Positions 9,911 through 47,420 of a stretch of 50,599 nt of DNA are shown in pieces. Below the pieces are notes generated by a model, which worked only from the letters and a program-made list of their open reading frames with translations, searched no databases and was not told the DNA's origin. Location: IMG/VR virus record IMGVR_UViG_3300033143_006358, positions 1-50,599 of that record; one strand, 5' to 3'. The stretch comes from a virus. Numbering within the stretch: position 1 is the stretch's first letter; the number at the start of each line of letters is the position of its first letter. The position numbers and the translations under genes are program-made.

Positions 9911-10951
9911 ATGAATGAAAAACCACAATCAGAGCGTTGGCCGGTAACCGTCACCACTGCCGGGGCAGCTTTCGTGACGCCATTACCGGCGCCGAGTAAC
10001 AGCCTAAGTCATTACGTAACCGGCATAAACTCTTCTGGCGCAGCAGTTTGCGTATTTCCGCGCCGCCAATGCGTACTATTTAATGAGGCCGCCGCCGCCG
10101 ATTTCATTACCGTGGCCGACGCCGCAGGCGTGCAGATAGCAAACTCCAAGGATTTCATCATCCTGTTCTGGTTCAAGGCTGCCAAAGCCCAGGTGTCCAC
10201 CGGGGATTTTGTCTCTAAAATCAACGGCACAAACGGTTATACGGTAGAAATCGACGCATCCGGCAAGCTCAAAGTATCCATCGGCGACGCCGATACCGAG
10301 GCGACAATAACCTCCACGAACGTCGTAAACGACGGGAAATGGCACCATGTAGCCATTTACGGCGAATATGGATCTGCCACCGGCCTCAAGTTGTTTATCG
10401 ACGGTGATTCTGCTGCGACCGCCGTTACGCTGGTCGGGGTCACCGGAATAGGCACCGGGGCAGCGGGCTTGATATTGGGAGGCGGCGCCACAAGCGCTAC
10501 CAAGACGATACACATGAGCCAGTTCGGGATTTACGTAGCTACTGATTTATCAACGACTTATGCGACTATTATCGCCGCTCATTATAACAAAGGCGAATCA
10601 GGCGAGGGCGGCGAAAGGGTCGTCGGTAAGAAGTTTATCGGTACAGAGACAAATTTACAGGTGGCCTACAACCTGGACGAAGGCGCCAGCACGGTAACGA
10701 CGGACCTGGTAGGGGCATTGGATGGTACTGCGGAGGCAACCGTGACCTGGGTAAATGACGGCGTGCCGTTCGAGAATTTCAAAAACAACGTCGCCGAACC
10801 GCTCCCCGCCGTGACTATAACAGCAGTGGCGGCGGGCAATACCAATATACAGTTCCCTCATCCCATCAAGATAGGTCGCAATGCGCCGTTACACGTGTCT
10901 ATATCGGCGGCGGCCACGGTCACATTTTTTGGTTATACAGACGGAGTATAA
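9911..10951 (+). CDS. LamG/concanavalin-like virion surface protein
   Basis: 346 residues. The N-terminus (about 1-60) is Pro/Ser-rich. Residues about 65-215 form a jelly-roll: FIILFWFKAAKA, GYTVEIDASGKLKVSIGD, DGKWHHVAIYGEYG, LKLFIDGDSAATA and LILGGGATSA are typical LamG (laminin-G/pentraxin-like) strands, with the WHHVA signature. A C-terminal beta domain ends VTFFGYTDGV. Such domains bind carbohydrates; on a phage this suggests host attachment or capsid decoration. GGAAGAT precedes the ATG. It is the only large structural gene outside the late operon. Confidence 0.8.
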   Translation: MNEKPQSERWPVTVTTAGAAFVTPLPAPSNSLSHYVTGINSSGAAVCVFPRRQCVLFNEAAAADFITVADAAGVQIANSKDFIILFWFKAAKAQVSTGDFVSKINGTNGYTVEIDASGKLKVSIGDADTEATITSTNVVNDGKWHHVAIYGEYGSATGLKLFIDGDSAATAVTLVGVTGIGTGAAGLILGGGATSATKTIHMSQFGIYVATDLSTTYATIIAAHYNKGESGEGGERVVGKKFIGTETNLQVAYNLDEGASTVTTDLVGALDGTAEATVTWVNDGVPFENFKNNVAEPLPAVTITAVAAGNTNIQFPHPIKIGRNAPLHVSISAAATVTFFGYTDGV

Positions 10952-19721: not shown

Positions 19722-21905
19722 TCAGGATGCCTTTTCGCTCAAGGTTATCGTACCGGTAATTAACAATCCTGTCAACTCAATGTCGTATGGGCCTACCACA
19801 CACTCTATGTTTGGCTCAAGAGTAAAACCGTCCAATTTAACGGCCTTGCAGCACGTGGAAGGATTGGTGGTAATATCTATCTGCACTTCGCCTTCCATAT
19901 CGTTCGTACTATCGGCGGCGGAGCCATATACGGTATCGCCCGTTTTGTCCCGAAACATACCAAAGGTGAGATATTCAGGCATATCCGACGCGATTCTCAA
20001 GCGCGTCCAGCGGGTGCATTTAATAGCGACCGCTTTTATTACCTTGCGGTGAAACAGATGATGCACGTCCATTTCCGGCCTTACGGGACTGAATCGCAAC
20101 TGCATATAGAGCGCGTTACAGGCGATTATCGAACCGGCAGCCGGAATAATATCGCCCGCCGAATTACTGCCCTGCCAGGTTGGAGTCGGCGTATCGTTCA
20201 CATAAGTCGTTCCCCGGTCGGACCCGGAAACTACGCGCACCACCCTACCGCCGCTCGGTGCGAGCGTCGCCAGGTCGCTTACGCCGTCCGCTACGGAGAA
20301 CGTGGCGTAACTTGCGTTAGCAGTAGGACATATACCACCGTCCTTATCCTGATTGTAGTCGGGCGTTGCCACCACGCCGTCGCCCCGGACGAAATAGGCC
20401 CGGACGCCGCCGCCCTCGTTAAACTCAACGTCCGGCCCGCTGGTAACAACCTCAAAGGGAAAATCATAGAGCATGGTAATGCTCTGCGTGGAGTCCCAGA
20501 GACAGGCGCATTGACCCAAATCGGCGTTCAAAATAAATACGCAGCCCATCTTAGAGTCATATCCCATAGAGATATTGTCGGTATAGGCGGACCATTCCTT
20601 ATGAAAAATACGGTTAAAGCCCTGTACCAACTGGCGCGCTCCGCCGCCTGCGCCCAATATCATCAATCCCTGCTGAGTGAGCATAACCACTTCCCGGTCG
20701 ATAGCGCATATCGCTTCTTTGCTCAATAGCCCCCTACCGTCCTGCATCCGACTGATCGCCACCTCGCCGCCGGCCTTGCGTATCAGATAACCGGCGGTAT
20801 TCGTAAAGGCATACAGATCGTCGCCGGCCCGGATAAATCGCTGCACCGGCCCGTCGCCCGGCAGTCCGGGATAAGAATATTCGCTGCCAAACTCCTCCGT
20901 ATTGGTTTTGTACGGATTGGTCCATACCAAACCCACGCCGCCGTTGGTATCGGGGTCTTGCGCTGCAAATACGCTGCCTTCGTAATAGGCGCAGGCGCCG
21001 GAGTTCGGCGGCATAATTAACGGATCAGCCCAGGGGTCGTACCGTTTCTGCTGGACCAACGCGGCATCAGACAGCAGGCCCATTGTGGCCTGACCGGCCT
21101 TGGCAATGGTTTGTTCCAGGAAAAGATCGCCCGTATGGTACGGATCGAGCGGGTCGCGCAGGTTCATACTGCGATAGACTTCCATCATATCCCAGTCTGC
21201 ATCACTCGGCGCATCGGGAATGTTAATAACCACTTTACAACCGTCGCTGCTGTCGGAAATCGACATGGTATGGGTAAGGCTCTCGCTTAGCCCGGTATAA
21301 ATCTGTCGTTTGGTATGATAATATTTATAGGCGAACATATATCGTCCGCGATGACTCAGGAAATGATCCGCCGTGTCGCCCGTTTCCGCGCCTGCCGTGG
21401 CCTCCGCCATATCGCCTGTTTTCATTTCGCCAAACGTATCATCGACCGGCCCCATCGGTTCTTCTTCGATACCTGAATCTTCGTAGAGCACTACAGGACC
21501 GGCGCTTTTTCTAAAAACATACAGGTATTCATGGCGCGAGCATACGTCCAGGCTCTTTGAGTCGGCGGGACCAGTTGCCGTCAAGGTTTGGGTCGTACCG
21601 CTGCCGTCTTCTTCTTCCAGTTCCAGGCGCAGGGCGTTGGAATTATATTGATAAAGGAATCCCCGATGCTCCACGCCGTCAACCGTCATGGCCACGTGCC
21701 GGCAAAAAGTTATTTTACCGGACGAAGGCCCGGTAAGGGTCATTACGTGCACGTTGCCCGGATACCGACGCGCGGACCCTCGGTAGCGACCGTCCACGCC
21801 CACCATACGGCTCATGGTATTGTCGGGCAGATTGTCGGGATGGACGGAAGCGTCCATCATGGCCCCGGCAATTCTATATTCAACCTGATAGTCTGCGTTT
21901 GCCAT
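19722..21905 (-). CDS. Tail nozzle / tubular-B-like protein
   Basis: 727 residues from ATG 21905 (the open frame extends upstream inside the methyltransferase gene). It is beta-rich with propeller-like blades (GDDLYAFTNTAGYLIRK; AICAIDREVVMLTQQGLMIL) and motifs common in podovirus nozzle proteins (VEYRIAGAMMDASVHPDNLP; LSHRGRYMFAYKYYHTKRQIYTGLSE). It is expected to form the distal short tail under the adaptor at 25901-26767. Its start overlaps the upstream stop by one base (TAATG). The fold assignment is inference. Confidence 0.7.
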   Translation of the reverse strand: MANADYQVEYRIAGAMMDASVHPDNLPDNTMSRMVGVDGRYRGSARRYPGNVHVMTLTGPSSGKITFCRHVAMTVDGVEHRGFLYQYNSNALRLELEEEDGSGTTQTLTATGPADSKSLDVCSRHEYLYVFRKSAGPVVLYEDSGIEEEPMGPVDDTFGEMKTGDMAEATAGAETGDTADHFLSHRGRYMFAYKYYHTKRQIYTGLSESLTHTMSISDSSDGCKVVINIPDAPSDADWDMMEVYRSMNLRDPLDPYHTGDLFLEQTIAKAGQATMGLLSDAALVQQKRYDPWADPLIMPPNSGACAYYEGSVFAAQDPDTNGGVGLVWTNPYKTNTEEFGSEYSYPGLPGDGPVQRFIRAGDDLYAFTNTAGYLIRKAGGEVAISRMQDGRGLLSKEAICAIDREVVMLTQQGLMILGAGGGARQLVQGFNRIFHKEWSAYTDNISMGYDSKMGCVFILNADLGQCACLWDSTQSITMLYDFPFEVVTSGPDVEFNEGGGVRAYFVRGDGVVATPDYNQDKDGGICPTANASYATFSVADGVSDLATLAPSGGRVVRVVSGSDRGTTYVNDTPTPTWQGSNSAGDIIPAAGSIIACNALYMQLRFSPVRPEMDVHHLFHRKVIKAVAIKCTRWTRLRIASDMPEYLTFGMFRDKTGDTVYGSAADSTNDMEGEVQIDITTNPSTCCKAVKLDGFTLEPNIECVVGPYDIELTGLLITGTITLSEKAS

Positions 21906-23137
21906 TATGAAGAGATAGTCCTTTTTAATATTTCCATGAATTCCACCGGACTTATCAAGTTTAGCGCTTTTTTCCGGTTTTGTTCCAAGTACGTATAGGT
22001 TAAATCCTGCCCGTTCAAGTTCAGGACTTGCTGTTTGCCCTGTCGGATTACGCCGACGCCGTAATCCGTATCTACCACGAACATTTCCAAATTCGGCTGT
22101 GTGGCGCGCCAGCGGATGAAAGCTCGCCAAACTGTCCCGCAGACGTTCAAAGACTCCGCCCCTGCCGATGGCGGATTGCAATCGTGCATGACAATTGTGC
22201 CGCCTTCATTGATACTTTGCTGTGCATTTTCCATGTCACGAAGCACTTGTCTCTCTTCGTGACAGCCGTCGATAAATATGAGATCGTATTTTTTATCGGG
22301 ATACGAAACAAAAAATTCATCCGATGTCATTTGGTATGTGGACACCGGCTTCGGGTCAATTCCTTCTTTTTGTTTACAACGTATTCGATCAAAACACCCT
22401 TTAGGGTCGCGAACGCCGATTTCAAGATAGGATTGATACCTATATTGATTGATTAGGCGGCGTATAATGTCAAACCGAAAACGAACATTATGATAGGTCA
22501 AGCCCAACTTACGTTTCCAATATGTAAAGTCGCCCCAATACGGGATATGCGTTTCATGCGTTTTGCACTCTCGGTATCCGGTAAAATTATTTCCATGCCG
22601 AATATCCAGGACCGGAAACTCTTTATCTATTTTTTCCGTTCGCCACGGGTCGGTCGTGGTCGCTCCTGGTTCTGGACGGGAAAAGAATTTGCCATTTTCC
22701 GTCTCTTCTTTACGAGATTGAAACGCTTCCTTTAGGATTTGCCGATGTCCACAGCAGCAACTTAACGGACCTGTCGCCATCTTGTCGCCGTATCCTTCAT
22801 AATTCAATAAGCGGCGAGGCCCTTGGTAATAAATGACATCCTTTTTCTGGGGTTCAAAATCGAAATATTCTTCTGGGTACAACACATCATGTTCTGCAAT
22901 AAACAGCACCTCGGAAGAACAAAAATCCAATCCACAATCAATCTGTTTGAATATAGTCTTTTGATGTCTGCCGAATTTCGTGCCGATACAGATATTCCGA
23001 CCAAATGGTATTGGCTTTTGGGATATGGATATAATAGGGATTTCTCTGGCCGCCTTGCGAAGTTGTTCCTGACAGCATTTTTGTATGGACGGTTTTAATG
23101 CGTTATCCGTTATGTAAATAATCTCTTTATGACTCAT
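21905..23137 (-). CDS. Fused glycosyltransferase and SAM-dependent methyltransferase
   Basis: 410 residues from ATG 23137. Residues about 1-220 look like a GT-A fold: IIYITDNALKP and IPIISISQKPIPFG at the start, then the metal-site-like EVLFIAEHDVLYPEEYFDF. Residues about 235-380 are a class-I methyltransferase: YLEIGVRDPKGCFDRI (SAM loop), a GIDPKP acidic turn, KKYDLIFIDGCHEERQVLRD and GGTIVMHDCNPP, the pattern of glycan-modifying Methyltransf_24 enzymes. I infer it adds and methylates a sugar on the glycan begun by the neighbouring GT. It overlaps that gene by 11 bases. Confidence 0.75.
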   Translation of the reverse strand: MSHKEIIYITDNALKPSIQKCCQEQLRKAAREIPIISISQKPIPFGRNICIGTKFGRHQKTIFKQIDCGLDFCSSEVLFIAEHDVLYPEEYFDFEPQKKDVIYYQGPRRLLNYEGYGDKMATGPLSCCCGHRQILKEAFQSRKEETENGKFFSRPEPGATTTDPWRTEKIDKEFPVLDIRHGNNFTGYRECKTHETHIPYWGDFTYWKRKLGLTYHNVRFRFDIIRRLINQYRYQSYLEIGVRDPKGCFDRIRCKQKEGIDPKPVSTYQMTSDEFFVSYPDKKYDLIFIDGCHEERQVLRDMENAQQSINEGGTIVMHDCNPPSAGAESLNVCGTVWRAFIRWRATQPNLEMFVVDTDYGVGVIRQGKQQVLNLNGQDLTYTYLEQNRKKALNLISPVEFMEILKRTISS

Positions 23138-24350
23138 TATTTTCAAACCTGTCGTATTCTTCCAGTCGCACTTCATCGCGCCAGTCCACAATGGCTTTAG
23201 TCGCCTCCACAGGATCTTCGCCCACGTTCAAAACGCCGGGGCCGCCGTGGTACAGGATTCGTCTCTCCGTAACCGTATGGTCAGTTTTATTTACCTTAGA
23301 GCATCCCACAGCCGCCTGCGCCCCCAGCGTCTTATCCCAGCCGGGCACGGGCCAGAATTTACCTACCAGCCACTCTACTCCATGAATTTGACGCGGACCC
23401 ATTCCTCCGTAAAACATTTCCTGAATTTTTCGTCTGGTTTCGTCAACCTCTTCCGGCTTGGTGTCATGCGACGCTTTCGAGTTAAAAAGATGTAAACATT
23501 TTACATCGTTATGCAAAAGACAGCGTCCGCCGGAAAGCCATACTTTCAGCGACATTTCTGAACCTTCCGCCCCCCACTTGCTCCATGACTCATTTCTGCC
23601 TTGTAGCTGCCAATATCTGCTTTTACGCATCATCCATCCGCAGCCGGTAATGGACATAGATTCGATAACCGTTTCTTGTTCGTTTTTCTTTCCCCACCAC
23701 TTATCCACCAATTCGGGCGTCAATCGCACTCTGCCGTAATTGTGGTTCTTGTTTATCCATTGTTCCCCTTCTATTTTTACCGCGTCCAGTTTGCCAATAA
23801 CCAAATCCATAGGTCCGCAAATCGCTTTCAGTTTTTCGTCCCACCCCTCGCTCATTTCACAGTGGGCGTCCACGATAAAGATAAATTCGCCTCTTGCCTC
23901 TTTTGCCGCTTCATTCATTAAGACTCTTCTGCCCTGATTATTTGCATCTAGTTTCTTGATAATTTCCACGGAACCATTTGCGGCTTTTCTTATTTGTTCT
24001 TCAGTTCGGTTCAGATATATTTCGGACGGTAGCGAAATAATAATCACGCTCACCTTACCGGGATCGCAGGCCGTCCACTGGTTCTCCGGGCAGGACTCAC
24101 TGGCCCATTCCGTCTTTTTCTGCATGTGACAGCCGCATTTCCGGCAGCGCGTGGATTCCCTTACCTTGCCGTTTTTCTCCACGGTCCGTTTAATCAGCAT
24201 ATCGCATTTGAGACAGCCTTCCTCCCAGCGCAGGATTCTTTCTTCCGGGGAGACGTTTACTTTTTCCCGCCGGGCTCTCTGTTTAGCGCGTCGATGCACG
24301 GCTCCGGCCAGGTTCAATGCCTGACGTGGTTTGCTCGGTAATTCGCTCAA
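23127..24350 (-). CDS. Polypeptide-GalNAc-transferase-like glycosyltransferase with zinc ribbon
   Basis: 407 residues. The N-terminal basic segment and a zinc ribbon (C46-x2-C49 ... C69-x2-C72) precede a GT-A catalytic core: SVIIISLPSE, then FIFIVDAHCEMSEGWDEKL with D161-A-H163, ITGCGWMMRKSRYW, and SKWGAEGSEMSLKVWLSGG leading to CLHLF (H287). In family GT27 the metal is held by DxH plus a later His, and WGxExxExSxRxW is diagnostic, so the enzyme may put the first sugar on Thr/Ser. A GT2-type relative cannot be excluded. TTG is the only upstream start, with AGGAGA 7 bases before. It begins 11 bases after the mucin-like gene. Confidence 0.75.
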   Translation of the reverse strand: MSELPSKPRQALNLAGAVHRRAKQRARREKVNVSPEERILRWEEGCLKCDMLIKRTVEKNGKVRESTRCRKCGCHMQKKTEWASESCPENQWTACDPGKVSVIIISLPSEIYLNRTEEQIRKAANGSVEIIKKLDANNQGRRVLMNEAAKEARGEFIFIVDAHCEMSEGWDEKLKAICGPMDLVIGKLDAVKIEGEQWINKNHNYGRVRLTPELVDKWWGKKNEQETVIESMSITGCGWMMRKSRYWQLQGRNESWSKWGAEGSEMSLKVWLSGGRCLLHNDVKCLHLFNSKASHDTKPEEVDETRRKIQEMFYGGMGPRQIHGVEWLVGKFWPVPGWDKTLGAQAAVGCSKVNKTDHTVTERRILYHGGPGVLNVGEDPVEATKAIVDWRDEVRLEEYDRFENNES

Positions 24351-24361
24351 GATTCATTCTC

Positions 24362-25369
24362 CTATATATAAGTTACGTCCCATTCTATCGTACCCCCGTT
24401 GCCGTCTCCGGTGCAAATGCCCCCGGTACAGTAGTTGTCCGCCACGTTGCAGGAATCGCTCCAAATCGCACCGCCCCATACTTCCTGAATAGACACACCG
24501 GCGTAGGTATTATCGTTCGTACCAAGGCCTGACGGACCGCAAAATGTAATCTTAACATGATCGTAATTAGGGGGATTAGTAAATCCGGCGTCATCCGTCG
24601 TCCAGGAACATTTTGTGGGTCGAACGTTGCCGCACTCCCAGAAGCATCCGGGTTCTGAGGGGGCCTTACCGAGCGAGGTCGTGTAATAGTAACCGCCCAG
24701 TCGGTAGGTGACGGTGACGGTATCGACGGAGCCACAACAGTCCGTACAAGCCTCCGGCGTCGTAGTCGAGGTAGTCGAAGTGGTTGTCGATGAAGTTGTA
24801 GTCGAGGTGGAACTACTTGTAGTGGTAGTGGTGGTGGAGGTTGTTGAGGACGTCGTGCCCGTAGTCGTTGTCGTAGTTGTCGTGGAGGTCGGAGTCGTCG
24901 TGCTGCTCGTCGTTCCCGTAGTCGTCGTAGAAGTCGTCGTAGAAGTCGTAGAGGTCGTACTGGTGCTTGTGGTCGTTGAAGTCGTGGTGGTCGTACTACT
25001 ACTAGTACTGCTGCTGGATGTCGTACTGCTCGTCGTGCCCGTAGTCGTCGTAGAGGTCGTAGAGGTCGTAGTGGTCGTAGTGGTCGTAGTCGAAGTCGTG
25101 GCACAGCAATCGTCCGGTATATAAGCGTACAAATTGTTTTTATTAGTATCGTAGCATACCATGTAATAATCGTCGCAGTCCGGTACGTACACTTCCAGCC
25201 AGGTCGGGTCGGATGTACCGAGCACTTCGGATGGATTATTGTACCCGGCGCAGAGTTCGCCGATGGCATAGAGACAGCCCGGCCCCACATCGACTTCGGA
25301 GCAGTTCTCGATAAGACCGTCGCCGTCGCCGTCGGGATCGTAGCCAAAGTATTCCAATACGTAAGCCAT
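24362..25369 (-). CDS. Cys-rich protein with Thr/Ser mucin-like stalk
   Basis: 335 residues. The N-domain (1-90) has about seven Cys and a DPDGDGDGLIENC calcium-loop-like motif. Residues 91-204 are almost only Thr and Ser, broken by three Gly and one Pro. The C-domain (205-335) has about ten Cys and beta strands (VDTVTVTYRLGGYYY; DHVKITFCG). All four Thr codons are used, so the run is selected as protein and is not a simple DNA repeat. The two GT genes follow directly. I infer a virion stalk carrying O-glycans. Cys enrichment is unusual for a phage protein made in the cytosol. The RBS is weak. Confidence 0.75.
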   Translation of the reverse strand: MAYVLEYFGYDPDGDGDGLIENCSEVDVGPGCLYAIGELCAGYNNPSEVLGTSDPTWLEVYVPDCDDYYMVCYDTNKNNLYAYIPDDCCATTSTTTTTTTTTSTTSTTTTGTTSSTTSSSSTSSSTTTTTSTTTSTSTTSTTSTTTSTTTTGTTSSTTTPTSTTTTTTTTGTTSSTTSTTTTTTSSSTSTTTSSTTTSTTSTTTPEACTDCCGSVDTVTVTYRLGGYYYTTSLGKAPSEPGCFWECGNVRPTKCSWTTDDAGFTNPPNYDHVKITFCGPSGLGTNDNTYAGVSIQEVWGGAIWSDSCNVADNYCTGGICTGDGNGGTIEWDVTYI

Positions 25370-25900: not shown

Positions 25901-26767
25901 TTAAAATCCCCTCATTCGCCGAGTGGTCCTGCCGTCCTGGTTCCGGGTGGACCCCTGGCTATAATCCTTCTGGGATATGAACATACGCAGCGACCGCATC
26001 TGGGCGGAATATTCCTTGCCTACCATGCCGTAGCGGATGGTATTGCCTTCCGCCAGGATGATTTTAAGCGCCGCGCGGGTGGCGACTACCAGGTCCATCG
26101 CCGACGGGAACGGCGGTATGATCTCAAAATCAACGTTATCTGTGGAAGTCACCAAGGCGGGACTCCATCCCGGCTCCACGGTTAATACGGAATCGCTCTG
26201 GGCGCTGACGACCTGATATTGCTCTACCGTATTATCGGTATTGGGCATGATATGAACTACGCTGCCCAGGTAAGAATTCGCCCGTCGGTCCCTATACCCG
26301 GCGGTGACGGAATCCGGTATGGTGATGGTATTGGCCGTATTATCGACGGTAGCGCTATTGGCCGCGAATAATCGGGCACAACCGTCCGGCTGAAACCGAA
26401 CCGTAACGGTGGTTCCGTCGGCGATATAACCGGGCTGAAACCGAATCCAGTTATTCTCAATGATACATTTCGTGCCGTAGGGTGAGAGCCGACTGCCCTT
26501 TTTGTAAAATATCTTGGTTCCCGTATCGTCGTCGTCTTCGCCGATACTGATAATCTGTCCGACCGTGGGCGGAACGGCGTAGAGTTCGGTGGCGGAGGAA
26601 TAAGTAAAGGTATATTTGGCCACGATTTTCGTATTACTGCTGCGCTGTAATTCCTGTAATACCTCAGCATAACTTTCTTCCAGGAGTTGAATAATTTCCT
26701 CCACCGAATACTTGGCGTTGGTTGCCGGTTCGTCGGTAATCTGTCGAACCTTGGCGACGGAGCGCAC
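25901..26767 (-). CDS. Head-tail adaptor (tail-tubular-A-like)
   Basis: 288 residues. The N-terminal helices (VAKVRQITDEPATNAKYSVEEIIQLLEESYAEVLQEL) followed by a beta domain and a terminal helix bundle (PSAMDLVVATRAALKIILAEG) fit the adaptors that bind under the portal in short-tailed phages. The start is GTG 26767. No ATG exists in frame back to the TAG that ends the upstream beta-helix gene, 14 codons away in the same frame. No clear SD was seen, so initiation here is odd (see findings). Confidence 0.65.
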   Translation of the reverse strand: MRSVAKVRQITDEPATNAKYSVEEIIQLLEESYAEVLQELQRSSNTKIVAKYTFTYSSATELYAVPPTVGQIISIGEDDDDTGTKIFYKKGSRLSPYGTKCIIENNWIRFQPGYIADGTTVTVRFQPDGCARLFAANSATVDNTANTITIPDSVTAGYRDRRANSYLGSVVHIMPNTDNTVEQYQVVSAQSDSVLTVEPGWSPALVTSTDNVDFEIIPPFPSAMDLVVATRAALKIILAEGNTIRYGMVGKEYSAQMRSLRMFISQKDYSQGSTRNQDGRTTRRMRGF

Positions 26768-26809: not shown

Positions 26810-28441
26810 CTAGGTTCCTACGACCGCCGTACCATACAGGTAGGTCTGTGATTTATTGGCTCCGCTGACCACCAGTGTTTCATCGTTGTCCCAGGTATGA
26901 CCGGCCCCGGCGCAGAAGACATAGTAGGTGGCGTCGTCCAGCCAGAATACGACCTGCCCCAGATTGTCCGTAGTCAGGAATCCGGCGTAGGCCGGCGAAC
27001 CGGACGAACTGAGACTTAACCAGCAGCGTGCGCCTTCGATGGCTACGCCGCCGGTCGTTTGGATAGTAAGCGTGCATTGATAGGCCCCGGCAACCGGCTG
27101 GCCGAGCGCTTCCAACGTATCGGTTATGCGGACGAAATCGCTGGTGTCACCGCCCGCCGTCATTAGGTTCGACAGTACCGAGCCGTCCACTACTTCCACC
27201 GTCATGTCGTCGCCGTCGGCGACCGCTGTCTTCATCAGGTGATCGAGATTGTTGGACACCATCACGTCCTGGGGCGTAGAGTTGAGAGTGCCCGAACTAG
27301 AGGAATAATTGCAGTTCATCACGTATAATGTTGCTGAATCATTCACATCAATATCGGTTTCTCCTCCACCGACACTATTACTATGTAATGTACAGTTAAT
27401 TAAGGCCGCTTTCGTATCCGCATCATTAAGCTGTACGCATATAGCGTTGCCTGTATGATTGGAAGTGCCGCTGCAAAATACCTGCACATTTTCTACGACG
27501 AAGTTCGCTGCACCCAACGCATCGCCGATCATTAGGCCGACCATATCTTCAGATGAAACATCGTTACGATAGTTGTATATAGTGCAGTTGCGAATGATGC
27601 CGTATCCATCGCTGCCTACTATTATCCCCCTACACTCATTACCCACTGCTGATGGGGAATCCATGTATATGGCACAATCTTCGATGATGATATTCTGTGC
27701 CCCTGATGCGTTAATACCATCAAATTCATGGGTAATCGTACAACGACTGATTCTACAATCTCGTGACCCGCGTGGATACATCCCGTCCGCGACGCCCAAG
27801 ACGATGCAATCTTCAACTACAACATTGCTGTGTCCCAAATAGCTGATCCCATGACCAAAGCCAGAACCGTCAGCCGTTAAATTCCTAATCGTGCAGCCGT
27901 CGCAGGGATTGATTGCATTGCCAGCCGCTGACTGAATAATTACGCCGCCCCTATCCGTTCCCTGAATCGTTACCGCCACTGCGGGCGATACCGTTTCTGC
28001 GTAGGTGCCCGGATAAATGATGATCGTGTCACCTGCGCTGGCGTTCGTTACGGCCTGTCCGATAGTGAGTACGGCGCTTTCAAAGCTATGACCTCCGTTG
28101 GAGTCATTGCCCGTCTTGGCTACGTGATGAACGTGGCTACTCTCCCCTCGGCGGGTAAAGACAGTGCCCGGTACGCCGAGGACCTGGATGTCGCCGGTGC
28201 TGCTGGCTGGGCATATCGTAATCATGTTCCCGTCGGTTTCCGCCGCCGTCAGGTCGAAATAGTAATAGCCGTCCTCCAATTCGGTCGGGTTCGTGTCATC
28301 GACCGCGTTCGCCGCTGCGCCGTCGATGCGGAGGTTGGCGGTGATATTGGCGGCGTCGCCCGCCTTGGGAACGTTGTCCGTCCGGTCGAAGGCGAATACG
28401 ACCCACTTTTGTCCCGTAGTTTTTTTTATCAGGTCTGCCAT
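26810..28441 (-). CDS. Right-handed beta-helix virion protein (fibre-like)
   Basis: 543 residues. The N-domain (1-100: VFAFDRTDNVPKAGDAANITANLRIDG...) resembles upper-baseplate/fibre attachment domains. Residues about 105-400 are parallel beta-helix rungs (AVLTIGQAVTNASAGDTIIIYPGTYAE; GCTIRNLTADGSGFGHG; VVVEDCIVLGV) of the DUF1565/pectate-lyase-like sort. The C-domain carries an Ig/carboxypeptidase-regulatory-like fold (AYQCTLTIQTTGGVAIEGARCWL). It is a probable host-binding or depolymerising fibre; no catalytic triad could be fixed. It starts by TAATG overlap with the mucin-like gene and ends in TAG. Confidence 0.8.
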   Translation of the reverse strand: MADLIKKTTGQKWVVFAFDRTDNVPKAGDAANITANLRIDGAAANAVDDTNPTELEDGYYYFDLTAAETDGNMITICPASSTGDIQVLGVPGTVFTRRGESSHVHHVAKTGNDSNGGHSFESAVLTIGQAVTNASAGDTIIIYPGTYAETVSPAVAVTIQGTDRGGVIIQSAAGNAINPCDGCTIRNLTADGSGFGHGISYLGHSNVVVEDCIVLGVADGMYPRGSRDCRISRCTITHEFDGINASGAQNIIIEDCAIYMDSPSAVGNECRGIIVGSDGYGIIRNCTIYNYRNDVSSEDMVGLMIGDALGAANFVVENVQVFCSGTSNHTGNAICVQLNDADTKAALINCTLHSNSVGGGETDIDVNDSATLYVMNCNYSSSSGTLNSTPQDVMVSNNLDHLMKTAVADGDDMTVEVVDGSVLSNLMTAGGDTSDFVRITDTLEALGQPVAGAYQCTLTIQTTGGVAIEGARCWLSLSSSGSPAYAGFLTTDNLGQVVFWLDDATYYVFCAGAGHTWDNDETLVVSGANKSQTYLYGTAVVGT

Positions 28442-28929
28442 TATGCGGCCCTCTTGAGAAACATTTCATAATATAAGGTCGGCTTTATCGCCGAGGTCGT
28501 CGTAGAACTCGTAGTGCCGGTCGTTGTGCTGCTCGTCGTTCCCGTAGTCGTTGTAGAGGTCGTTGTCGTACTAGAGGTGGTTGTGGATGTGGTCGAAGAG
28601 GTCGTACTTGTTGTGCTGCTGGTGGTTGTCGTCGAAGTGGTCGTGGTACTACTCGTGGTCGTAGAAGTGGTGCTGGAAGTCGTTGTTGTGGAGGTTGTGG
28701 TGCTAGTAGAGGTTGTCGTAGTCGTCGTGGATGACGTGGTACTGGTTGTCGAAGAGGTTGTGGAGGTAGTTGTGCTCGTGGTTGTCGTCGTTGTCGTGGT
28801 TGTCGTGGTGGTGGATGTGGTTGTCGTAGTGGTAGTAGTGGTCGTGGTGACGGCGGGCGGCGCGGCCTGGATGGCGCCGATGTCCATGCCATCGGTTTGA
28901 ATCGAACCTATATCCATATACGTAGCCAT
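28441..28929 (-). CDS. Second mucin-like Thr-rich protein with DIGxIQ motifs
   Basis: 162 residues. Two DIG(S/A)IQ motifs at residues 6-20 are followed, after APPAV, by about 120 residues of Thr with Ser and a few Gly, ending IKPTLYYEMFLKRAA. The DIGxIQ motif usually follows beta-helix domains, and here it comes right after the beta-helix protein encoded upstream in the same frame. Thr codons are mixed (ACT, ACC, ACG, ACA). It is likely a stalk or linker on the virion and a second candidate substrate for the glycosyltransferases at 21905-24350. Confidence 0.75.
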   Translation of the reverse strand: MATYMDIGSIQTDGMDIGAIQAAPPAVTTTTTTTTTTTSTTTTTTTTTTTTSTTTSTTSSTTSTTSSTTTTTTSTSTTTSTTTTSSTTSTTTSSTTTTSTTTTSSTTSTTSSTTSTTTSSTTTTSTTTTGTTSSTTTGTTSSTTTSAIKPTLYYEMFLKRAA

Positions 28930-46598: not shown

Positions 46599-46689
46599 TG
46601 TTATTTCCTTTCCAAATTAAAGGGGCGGGGCGCCGGACCGTCCGGCGATCGTTCATTACTTTGTCCAAAAGAAGTAGTTTTTTTCTCAT
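46576..46689 (-). CDS. Possible 37-residue protein
   Basis: ATG 46689 overlaps the methyltransferase TAA (TAATG). The peptide reads MRKKLLLLDKVMNDRRTVRR and runs into the next gene's start. It contains the palindrome CGCCGGACCGTCCGGCG (46631-46647), so the stretch may instead be a hairpin leader. Confidence 0.3.
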   Translation of the reverse strand: MRKKLLLLDKVMNDRRTVRRPAPLIWKGNNNENSPGF

Positions 46690-47420
46690 TATTTAGACTC
46701 ATTATCACGCTCCCTTCCGGTTCCTACGTTTTCGTTTTCCCCGCCCCCGACGGTAAACAAACATTGTTCCTCTTTTGGTTTTTCTTCTTTCGATGACTCA
46801 AACAGATACGGCTGACTTAATTCCTTTTCGATCCGCTGCTTGGCAATCTCGTAGTATTTCTGCTCGATCTCGATCCCGATGAATTTTCTGCCCGTGCGGA
46901 TACAGGCCACGCCGGTTGTGCCGCTGCCCATGAAGGGGTCAAGAATAGTTTCGCCCTCTTTGGTCATTCGCTCTACTAATAAACACATATATTCAATGGG
47001 CTTCGGTGTTGGGTGATCTGGCATTATTCCCCGCACCGAAAAACACATTACATTTTGCTGTAGCATTTTTGGTTTAGATATTGCCACAACAGCAGCAATC
47101 CAATTTGAAAAACCTATCGGGCTTCTGGTTCTACTATTAGTATTCCATGCTGCGACAACATCAACAAAATCATTACCTGCGAGTGGTATAGAGTCAGCCA
47201 GCCCAGCCGAGCCAGTTATAATCACAATCATTTTTACAATCCGCTTGGCATCACTATACCATTGTGTCGCAAATCCATTGTCCCAGTCGGCTTTGCCGCA
47301 CCCATACGGCGGGTCGGTTATCACGGCATCCACGCTTTTGTCCTCCATCGTTTTCATTACGTCCAGGCAATCGCCCTGGATCAGAGTCATGTCGCCAATC
47401 TGTTCAGTTTCATGCGTCAT
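46689..47420 (-). CDS. DNA methyltransferase (adenine-N6 or cytosine-N4, beta class)
   Basis: 243 residues. The catalytic TDPPYGCGKADWD (residues 35-47, motif IV) comes before the SAM-binding LDPFMGSGTTGVACIRTG (about 158-175, motif I), which is the beta-class order. HPTPKPIEYMCLLVERM and FIGIEIEQKYYEIAKQRI complete the core. The recognition domain is short and a Glu/Gly-rich tail follows. No restriction enzyme is nearby, so protection from host restriction is likely. ATGA overlap with the gene before. Confidence 0.9.
   Translation of the reverse strand: MTHETEQIGDMTLIQGDCLDVMKTMEDKSVDAVITDPPYGCGKADWDNGFATQWYSDAKRIVKMIVIITGSAGLADSIPLAGNDFVDVVAAWNTNSRTRSPIGFSNWIAAVVAISKPKMLQQNVMCFSVRGIMPDHPTPKPIEYMCLLVERMTKEGETILDPFMGSGTTGVACIRTGRKFIGIEIEQKYYEIAKQRIEKELSQPYLFESSKEEKPKEEQCLFTVGGGENENVGTGRERDNESK

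What the first reader, a model, noticed from the sequence alone, without database searches (positions are those of the whole stretch)
21905..25369. Putative phage mucin-type O-glycosylation cassette
Three late genes stand in a row: a Cys-rich protein with a 114-residue Thr/Ser stalk, a glycosyltransferase with DAH (161-163), WGAEGSEMSLKVW and CLHLF signatures like family GT27 polypeptide-GalNAc transferases, and a fused glycosyltransferase-methyltransferase. In animals GT27 enzymes start mucin O-glycans on Thr/Ser. I infer that this phage sugar-coats its own stalk: first sugar, second sugar, methyl cap. Seen: motifs and gene order. Known: GT27 chemistry. Inferred: the pairing. I know of no described phage system of this make-up.
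Basis: partly seen in the sequence, partly recalled or inferred. Interest (0 to 1): 0.93.

Follow-up and report, generated by a model that had tools for sequence, protein, structure and literature searches.

The report
Phage mucin-like stalk glycosylation cassette
This uncultured phage, and at least six others, carry an enzyme resembling the one that starts sugar coats on animal mucins right beside a gene for a serine/threonine-packed stalk protein, so these phages probably sugar-coat their own fibres much as animals coat mucus proteins.

Summary
The three genes are real and stand where stated. The stalk has a 115-residue Thr/Ser tract (78 T, 32 S) written with all ten Thr/Ser codons, so it is no microsatellite. 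The 407-aa enzyme is GT27-like by sequence, profile and fold. A 14-member viral profile hits polypeptide GalNAc-transferases at 3e-37. An AlphaFold model (pLDDT 83) has GalNAc-Ts as all 50 listed best PDB matches. The metal ligands (DxH plus a distal His) are invariant. GT27-signature scans chosen without regard to stalks gave nine usable viral contigs. In seven, a Ser/Thr-rich stalk gene lies within 0-1.3 kb: poly-Thr/Ser, (Ser-Pro)n or poly-Ser. An eighth has a collagen-like stalk there. The second enzyme's N-terminal domain is fused to the GT27-like domain in two relatives. Thymidylate-synthase and C5-methylase searches found no DNA-glycosylation machinery in this phage or its nearest relative. 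Not shown: activity, donor sugar (GalNAc is unproven), step order, virion location, host. Phage virion glycosylation is known in mycobacteriophages, but with other enzymes and targets, and I found no described GT27-like/mucin-type phage system. Verdict: a new variant of virion glycosylation, likely real, high interest.

The parts
24362..25369 (-). Cys-rich Thr/Ser stalk protein (335 aa), proposed acceptor
   Evidence: ORF; homologue in G001, 51% identical overall, 63% in the 89-aa head
24755..25099 (-). 115-residue Thr/Ser tract (aa 91-205)
   Evidence: codon analysis: all Thr and Ser codons mixed; same length (115) in G001
25103..25369 (-). Cys-rich head of the stalk protein (aa 1-89)
   Evidence: 63% identical in G001; no Pfam or PHROG hit
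23127..24350 (-). GT27-like glycosyltransferase (407 aa), proposed initiating protein O-glycosyltransferase
   Evidence: PF00535 2e-10; PDB sequence hits to ppGalNAc-Ts; fold
24075..24215 (-). Zn-ribbon-like Cys module (aa 46-92) of the GT27-like enzyme
   Evidence: phrog_13558 7e-6; same module on GT60-like phage enzymes
23862..23870 (-). DxH metal-binding motif (D161-A-H163)
   Evidence: invariant D and H in 14 viral sequences
23538..23576 (-). WGxE..E...W motif (aa 259-271)
23490..23492 (-). distal His (H287), third metal-ligand position of GT27
   Evidence: invariant in 14 viral sequences
21905..23137 (-). fused second glycosyltransferase-like domain (aa 1-215, ExD motif) and Methyltransf_24 domain; its ATG overlaps the end of the upstream gene by 11 bases
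22493..23137 (-). N-terminal EHD-type domain, homologous to domains fused to GT27-like enzymes in G002 and G006
   Evidence: 6e-21 and 1e-15; alignment A6
21905..22492 (-). Methyltransf_24 domain
   Evidence: PF13578 2.6e-11; stand-alone relatives in other phages
28441..28929 (-). second Thr/Ser-rich protein (162 aa, tract aa 28-146: 86 T, 31 S), possible further acceptor
   Evidence: G001 counterpart 23131-24456
25901..26767 (-). upstream tail/adaptor-like gene, shared with G001 (role inferred)
   Evidence: 40.6% identical in G001
19722..21905 (-). downstream tail-nozzle-like gene, shared with G001 (role inferred)
   Evidence: 36% identical in G001 over 740 aa; start

Best explanation
A late-gene cassette by which the phage O-glycosylates its own structural stalk during assembly in the host cytoplasm. 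The GT27-like enzyme (23127-24350), carrying a Zn-ribbon module that may hold it to its substrate, transfers a sugar from a nucleotide-sugar to Thr/Ser residues of the 115-residue tract of the neighbouring Cys-rich protein (24362-25369), and perhaps of the second Thr/Ser protein (28441-28929). The EHD-type domain of the next gene then extends the glycan and its methyltransferase domain caps it. The product would be a stiff, hydrated, mucin-like brush in the tail region. Shown: genes, motifs, GT27-like sequence and fold, and recurrent side-by-side placement with unrelated Ser/Thr stalks. Inferred: catalysis, acceptor, sugar identity, step order and virion location.
For: A profile of the two closest sequences hits only GT27 enzymes in the PDB (best 3e-11). 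The 14-sequence viral profile hits ppGalNAc-T1 at 3e-37 over the whole domain, while other GT2 enzymes match mainly the N-terminal part and more weakly. The AF2 model (pLDDT 83, pTM 0.84) has all 50 listed best Foldseek PDB hits in ppGalNAc-Ts (1.6e-13). The DxH and distal His are invariant. The stalk-enzyme pair is conserved in G001 while the downstream enzymes are swapped for other GTs and methyltransferases. GT27-like genes found by an enzyme-only signature lie 0-314 bp from Ser/Thr stalk genes in G002, G003, G004 and G007 and 1.3 kb away in G006. Placement within 100 bp occurs in 4 of 8 contigs versus 0.06 expected, p about 5e-5. With one contig per lineage, 3 of 6 lie within 500 bp versus 0.18, p 8e-4. 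GT27-like and EHD-type domains are fused in G002 and G006. In virion-glycosylating phage Che8, gp108 is likewise a GT2-Methyltransf_24 fusion.
Against: No biochemical data. This copy has Asn where most relatives have Arg/Lys after the distal HxF, and Gly where animal enzymes have Asn after the catalytic Glu, so donor and activity are uncertain. It lacks the ricin-type lectin domain. G005 has no nearby stalk and G008 has a collagen-like one. Tail regions often hold low-complexity proteins; control genes showed 2 of 270 at the same Ser/Thr threshold. Some contigs are fragments and two pairs are related, so independent lineages are few.
Confidence: 0.7

Rival explanations
1. The enzymes glycosylate other virion proteins (capsid, tail tube, adaptor) as in mycobacteriophages, and the Thr/Ser tract is only a flexible spacer that happens to lie beside them.
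For: Known virion glycosylation in Che8-type phages targets capsid and tail tube (PMC12619734; PMC11256854). Che8 has a GT-methyltransferase fusion in a cassette where no Ser/Thr stalk gene is annotated. G008 lacks a Ser/Thr tract.
Against: The GT27-like gene sits beside a Ser/Thr-rich stalk in seven contigs with at least three unrelated stalk types, far above chance.
Confidence: 0.18
2. The enzymes modify the host surface (lipopolysaccharide or teichoic acid), giving superinfection exclusion or serotype change.
For: Phage GT2-type enzymes often do this; two of 14 viral relatives weakly match a GtrB-like PHROG. Bacterial GT2 polymer synthases share the fold.
Against: No flippase, polyprenol-type enzyme or integrase was seen among the window ORFs scanned with Pfam. 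The genes lie inside the late structural block beside the stalk. GT27 hits outrank all lipid-linked GT2 enzymes.
Confidence: 0.06
3. The enzymes glycosylate phage DNA bases.
For: Many phage GTs do so, and the window encodes an N6/N4 DNA methylase at 46689-47420.
Against: No thymidylate-synthase-type hydroxymethylase or C5 methylase in this phage or G001. No TET/JBP hit (but that search had no positive control). A TET-associated GT appears only at rank 37 with TM 0.45 in the viral fold search.
Confidence: 0.03

Closest known systems
GT27 polypeptide GalNAc-transferases (mucin-type O-glycosylation), e.g. Toxoplasma GalNAc-T3 acting on the Thr-rich mucin domain of CST1
   Same: GT-A fold, DxH plus distal His metal site, WGxE motif, Thr-rich acceptor in a protein with a Cys-rich domain (PMC11074326)
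   Different: no ricin-type lectin domain or membrane anchor, Zn-ribbon N-terminus, only about 15-19% identity, donor unknown, prokaryotic virus
Mycobacteriophage virion glycosylation (Che8, Corndog, Myrna; Freeman et al. 2023, cited in PMC12363180)
   Same: phage-encoded GT set with a GT2-Methyltransf_24 fusion (Che8 gp108) in phages whose virion proteins are glycosylated
   Different: Che8 GTs score at most 17 bits with the GT27-like profile; known targets are capsid and tail tube, not a Thr/Ser stalk
TET-associated and other DNA-hypermodifying phage GTs
   Same: GT-A fold phage enzymes
   Different: weak fold match (TM 0.45); no hydroxymethylating enzymes found here
GT60-like 'DSHS/DSHT' phage GTs (L028-L030)
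   Same: share the CxxC...CxxCGCxM Zn-ribbon module
   Different: different catalytic family (GT60 assignment from motif recall, not tested); Zn ribbon is C-terminal; no Ser/Thr tract seen at the two loci checked

Membership tests
GT27 polypeptide GalNAc-transferases | GT-A catalytic domain homologous to ppGalNAc-Ts over its whole length | tested here: met
   profile 3e-37 over positions 3-263; Foldseek top 50 all ppGalNAc-Ts
GT27 polypeptide GalNAc-transferases | DxH plus distal His metal ligands | tested here: met
   invariant in 14 viral sequences; D161, H163, H287 here
GT27 polypeptide GalNAc-transferases | C-terminal ricin-B lectin domain | tested here: not met
   no lectin domain by Pfam; only about 62 aa follow the catalytic domain
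GT27 polypeptide GalNAc-transferases | UDP-GalNAc donor and Thr/Ser acceptor activity | not testable with these tools
   needs enzyme assay; Gly instead of Asn after the catalytic Glu makes GalNAc uncertain
Phage virion self-glycosylation (mycobacteriophage type) | phage GT and methyltransferase genes encoded together by the phage | tested here: met
Phage virion self-glycosylation (mycobacteriophage type) | homology of the GTs to Che8 gp108-110 | tested here: inconclusive
   GT27-like profile scores gp108 at 17 bits; shared GT2/Methyltransf_24 superfamilies only
Phage virion self-glycosylation (mycobacteriophage type) | glycans found on virion proteins | not testable with these tools
   uncultured virus
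DNA-glycosylating phage GT systems | base-hydroxymethylating or TET/C5-methylase partner gene | tested here: not met
   no PF00145 or PF00303 in G000 or G001 (positive controls rang); PF12851 also silent but without a control

The most novel reading that the evidence does not exclude
A previously unrecognised family of viral, prokaryote-side GT27-like protein O-glycosyltransferases builds mucin-like sugar brushes on phage tail stalks. The stalk chemistry is interchangeable (Thr/Ser, Ser-Pro repeats, poly-Ser, collagen-like) and the extension and capping enzymes are swapped like cassettes, so mucin-type protein glycosylation exists outside eukaryotes.
Probability: 0.58. Interest if true: 0.88.

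Novelty: new variant of a known kind. Interest (0 to 1): 0.8.

Why it matters
Mucin-type O-glycosylation is usually treated as a eukaryotic trait; one paper states that O-GalNAc on Ser/Thr does not occur in bacteria (PMC5504323 abstract). GT27-like enzymes beside Ser/Thr stalks in several phage lineages suggest either convergent use or an old shared origin of this chemistry, and a new way for phages to shield or stiffen their fibres. The genes are small and cytoplasmic, so the idea can be tested in a laboratory E. coli strain and could yield bacterial tools for making mucin-like proteins.

Tried and rejected
Single-sequence relative searches failed. Profile scans with two sequences returned only the known relative or Zn-ribbon hits, and the first genome scan found nothing. 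AF2 with a two-sequence alignment was useless (pLDDT 30); the 14-sequence alignment of the catalytic domain fixed it. Microsatellite origin of the tract was rejected on codon diversity. DNA glycosylation was tested and disfavoured. A generic scan for Thr/Ser tracts returned many simple repeats and poly-Ser; only general GT2-level hits appeared in those loci, so not every Ser/Thr tract comes with a GT27-like gene. In my first Ser/Thr threshold the stalks of G004 and G006 were missed because half their residues are Pro/Val/Ile; they were found by reading the ORFs. The G006 1591-2766 stalk was added by hand to the permutation test, and G003 is not in it. L158 and L159 pattern hits were chance. 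Isolate phages contain no close relative.

Full report
WHAT WAS CLAIMED. Three late genes in a row were said to be a Cys-rich Thr/Ser stalk, a GT27-like glycosyltransferase and a fused glycosyltransferase-methyltransferase, and the phage was inferred to sugar-coat its own stalk.

OBSERVATION. All three ORFs exist on the - strand. The window is a virus record of 50,599 bases with terminase and portal hits on the same strand. The stalk protein (24362-25369) has a 115-residue tract (78 T, 32 S, 3 G, 2 P) using all four Thr and all six Ser codons without a regular pattern. It is therefore not a simple DNA repeat. The enzyme starts with TTG behind an AGGAG; its relative uses ATG at the same place. 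The third gene's likely ATG (23137) overlaps the second gene's end by 11 bases. A second Thr/Ser protein lies at 28441-28929.

WHAT THE ENZYME IS. Pfam gives GT2 (2e-10) and a weak Glyco_transf_7C hit. PDB sequence search with the single protein gives ppGalNAc-Ts (3.8e-8). With the two-sequence profile all 16 hits are GT27 (3e-11); 8uhv is Toxoplasma GalNAc-T3. An enzyme-only DNA signature (WG.E..E...G...H.F) was scanned through the viral collection and gave ten contigs. L158 and L159 were chance; the rest encode GT27-like proteins, some twice. A 14-sequence alignment keeps D161, H163 and H287 invariant, the residues that bind the metal in GT27 (DxH: PMC11074326; the distal His is from general knowledge of GalNAc-T structures). 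That profile hits ppGalNAc-T1 at 3e-37 over the full domain, against 1e-17 for the nearest other enzyme, chondroitin synthase. The AlphaFold model from it (pLDDT 83, pTM 0.84) finds ppGalNAc-Ts as all 50 listed best PDB matches (TM 0.60-0.77 by query). The enzyme differs from animal GT27 in lacking the lectin domain, in having a Zn-ribbon-like N-terminus, and in Gly for Asn after the catalytic Glu and Asn for Arg after HxF. Sugar specificity and activity therefore stay open.

THE PAIRING. In the nearest relative G001 (54.9 kb) the stalk and enzyme genes are again adjacent (51% and 55% identical; stalk tract again 115 residues), while the downstream enzymes are replaced by a methyltransferase, a GT2-methyltransferase fusion and a second GT27-like enzyme. 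G002: the GT27-like gene overlaps a 1476-aa Ser-Pro-repeat protein. G003: 12 bp from a Cys-rich protein with 56 consecutive Ser. G004: 46 bp from a Ser-Pro-repeat protein. G007: 314 bp from the first of two Ser-Pro-repeat proteins. G006: 1.3 kb from the first of two Ser-Pro-repeat proteins. G008: 2 bp from a collagen/BclA_C protein, in a contig with NeuB and a cytidylyltransferase. G005: no nearby stalk. Random placement of the GT gene gives 0.06 contigs within 100 bp against 4 of 8 observed (p about 5e-5). With one contig per lineage, 3 of 6 lie within 500 bp against 0.18 expected (p 8e-4). G000-G001 and G004-G007 are related pairs (17 and 18 ORFs with matches), so about five lineages carry the Ser/Thr pairing once G003 is counted.

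THE SECOND ENZYME. The N-terminal domain of 21905-23137 has an invariant ExD motif in a seven-member family with no PDB hit and only a weak GT2 hit in one member. In G002 and G006 it is fused to the GT27-like domain, and in G004 and G007 it is encoded next to it. Its methyltransferase domain has stand-alone relatives in many phages. Extension and methyl capping are inferred from this.

RIVALS. DNA glycosylation lacks partner enzymes here (the TET search had no control) and a TET-associated GT is only rank 37 in the viral fold search. Host-surface modification lacks flippase-type partners and does not explain the stalk neighbours. Glycosylation of other virion proteins remains the main rival.

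KNOWN PRECEDENT. Mycobacteriophages glycosylate capsid and tail tube (PMC12363180, PMC12619734, PMC11256854). Che8 gp108 is a GT2-Methyltransf_24 fusion, a notable parallel to the third gene, but its GTs are not GT27-like. Literature searches for phage mucin-type or GT27 systems returned nothing relevant; the Freeman and Pyle papers themselves were not held.

VERDICT. The central inference is well supported by comparative genomics, and the chemistry is untested. I rate it a new variant of phage virion glycosylation with high interest.

Noticed in passing
window 28441-28929 (-): A second Thr/Ser-rich protein (119-residue tract, 86 T and 31 S); its G001 counterpart (23131-24456) has a longer N-terminal part before the tract.
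   Followed up: partly
window 24075-24215; L028:8744-10174, L029:2190-3482, L031:9872-10114: The same Zn-ribbon-like module (CxxC...CxxCGCxM...CPxxxW) is attached to GT27-like and GT60-like phage enzymes and also stands alone, hinting at a shared targeting module.
   Followed up: partly
L190:9643-12542 and L191:665-4003 (contig IMGVR_UViG_3300025889_014311): A phage contig with NeuB (3.5e-81), a cytidylyltransferase and LicD together with a collagen/BclA_C stalk abutting a GT27-like gene: possible sialic-acid-like virion sugar.
   Followed up: partly
L188:15740-20000 with L189:1-2712 (G007), and L180:8508-17588 (G004): Long islands of GTs, several methyltransferases and epimerase-like genes upstream of Ser-Pro-repeat stalks in G007 and G004.
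   Followed up: partly
L195:6172-7347 (Che8 gp108): Che8 gp108, in the glycosyltransferase cluster of a phage with reported virion glycosylation, is a GT2-Methyltransf_24 fusion, matching the architecture of the window's third gene.
   Followed up: yes
L168:3617-6550: A bacterial (Alicyclobacillaceae MAG) protein with a GT27-like domain (1e-27 with the viral profile); the long N-terminal part of the ORF is probably spurious.
   Followed up: no
window 9911-10951 (+) and 46689-47420 (-): A laminin-G-like protein on the opposite strand and an N6/N4 DNA methylase.
   Followed up: no
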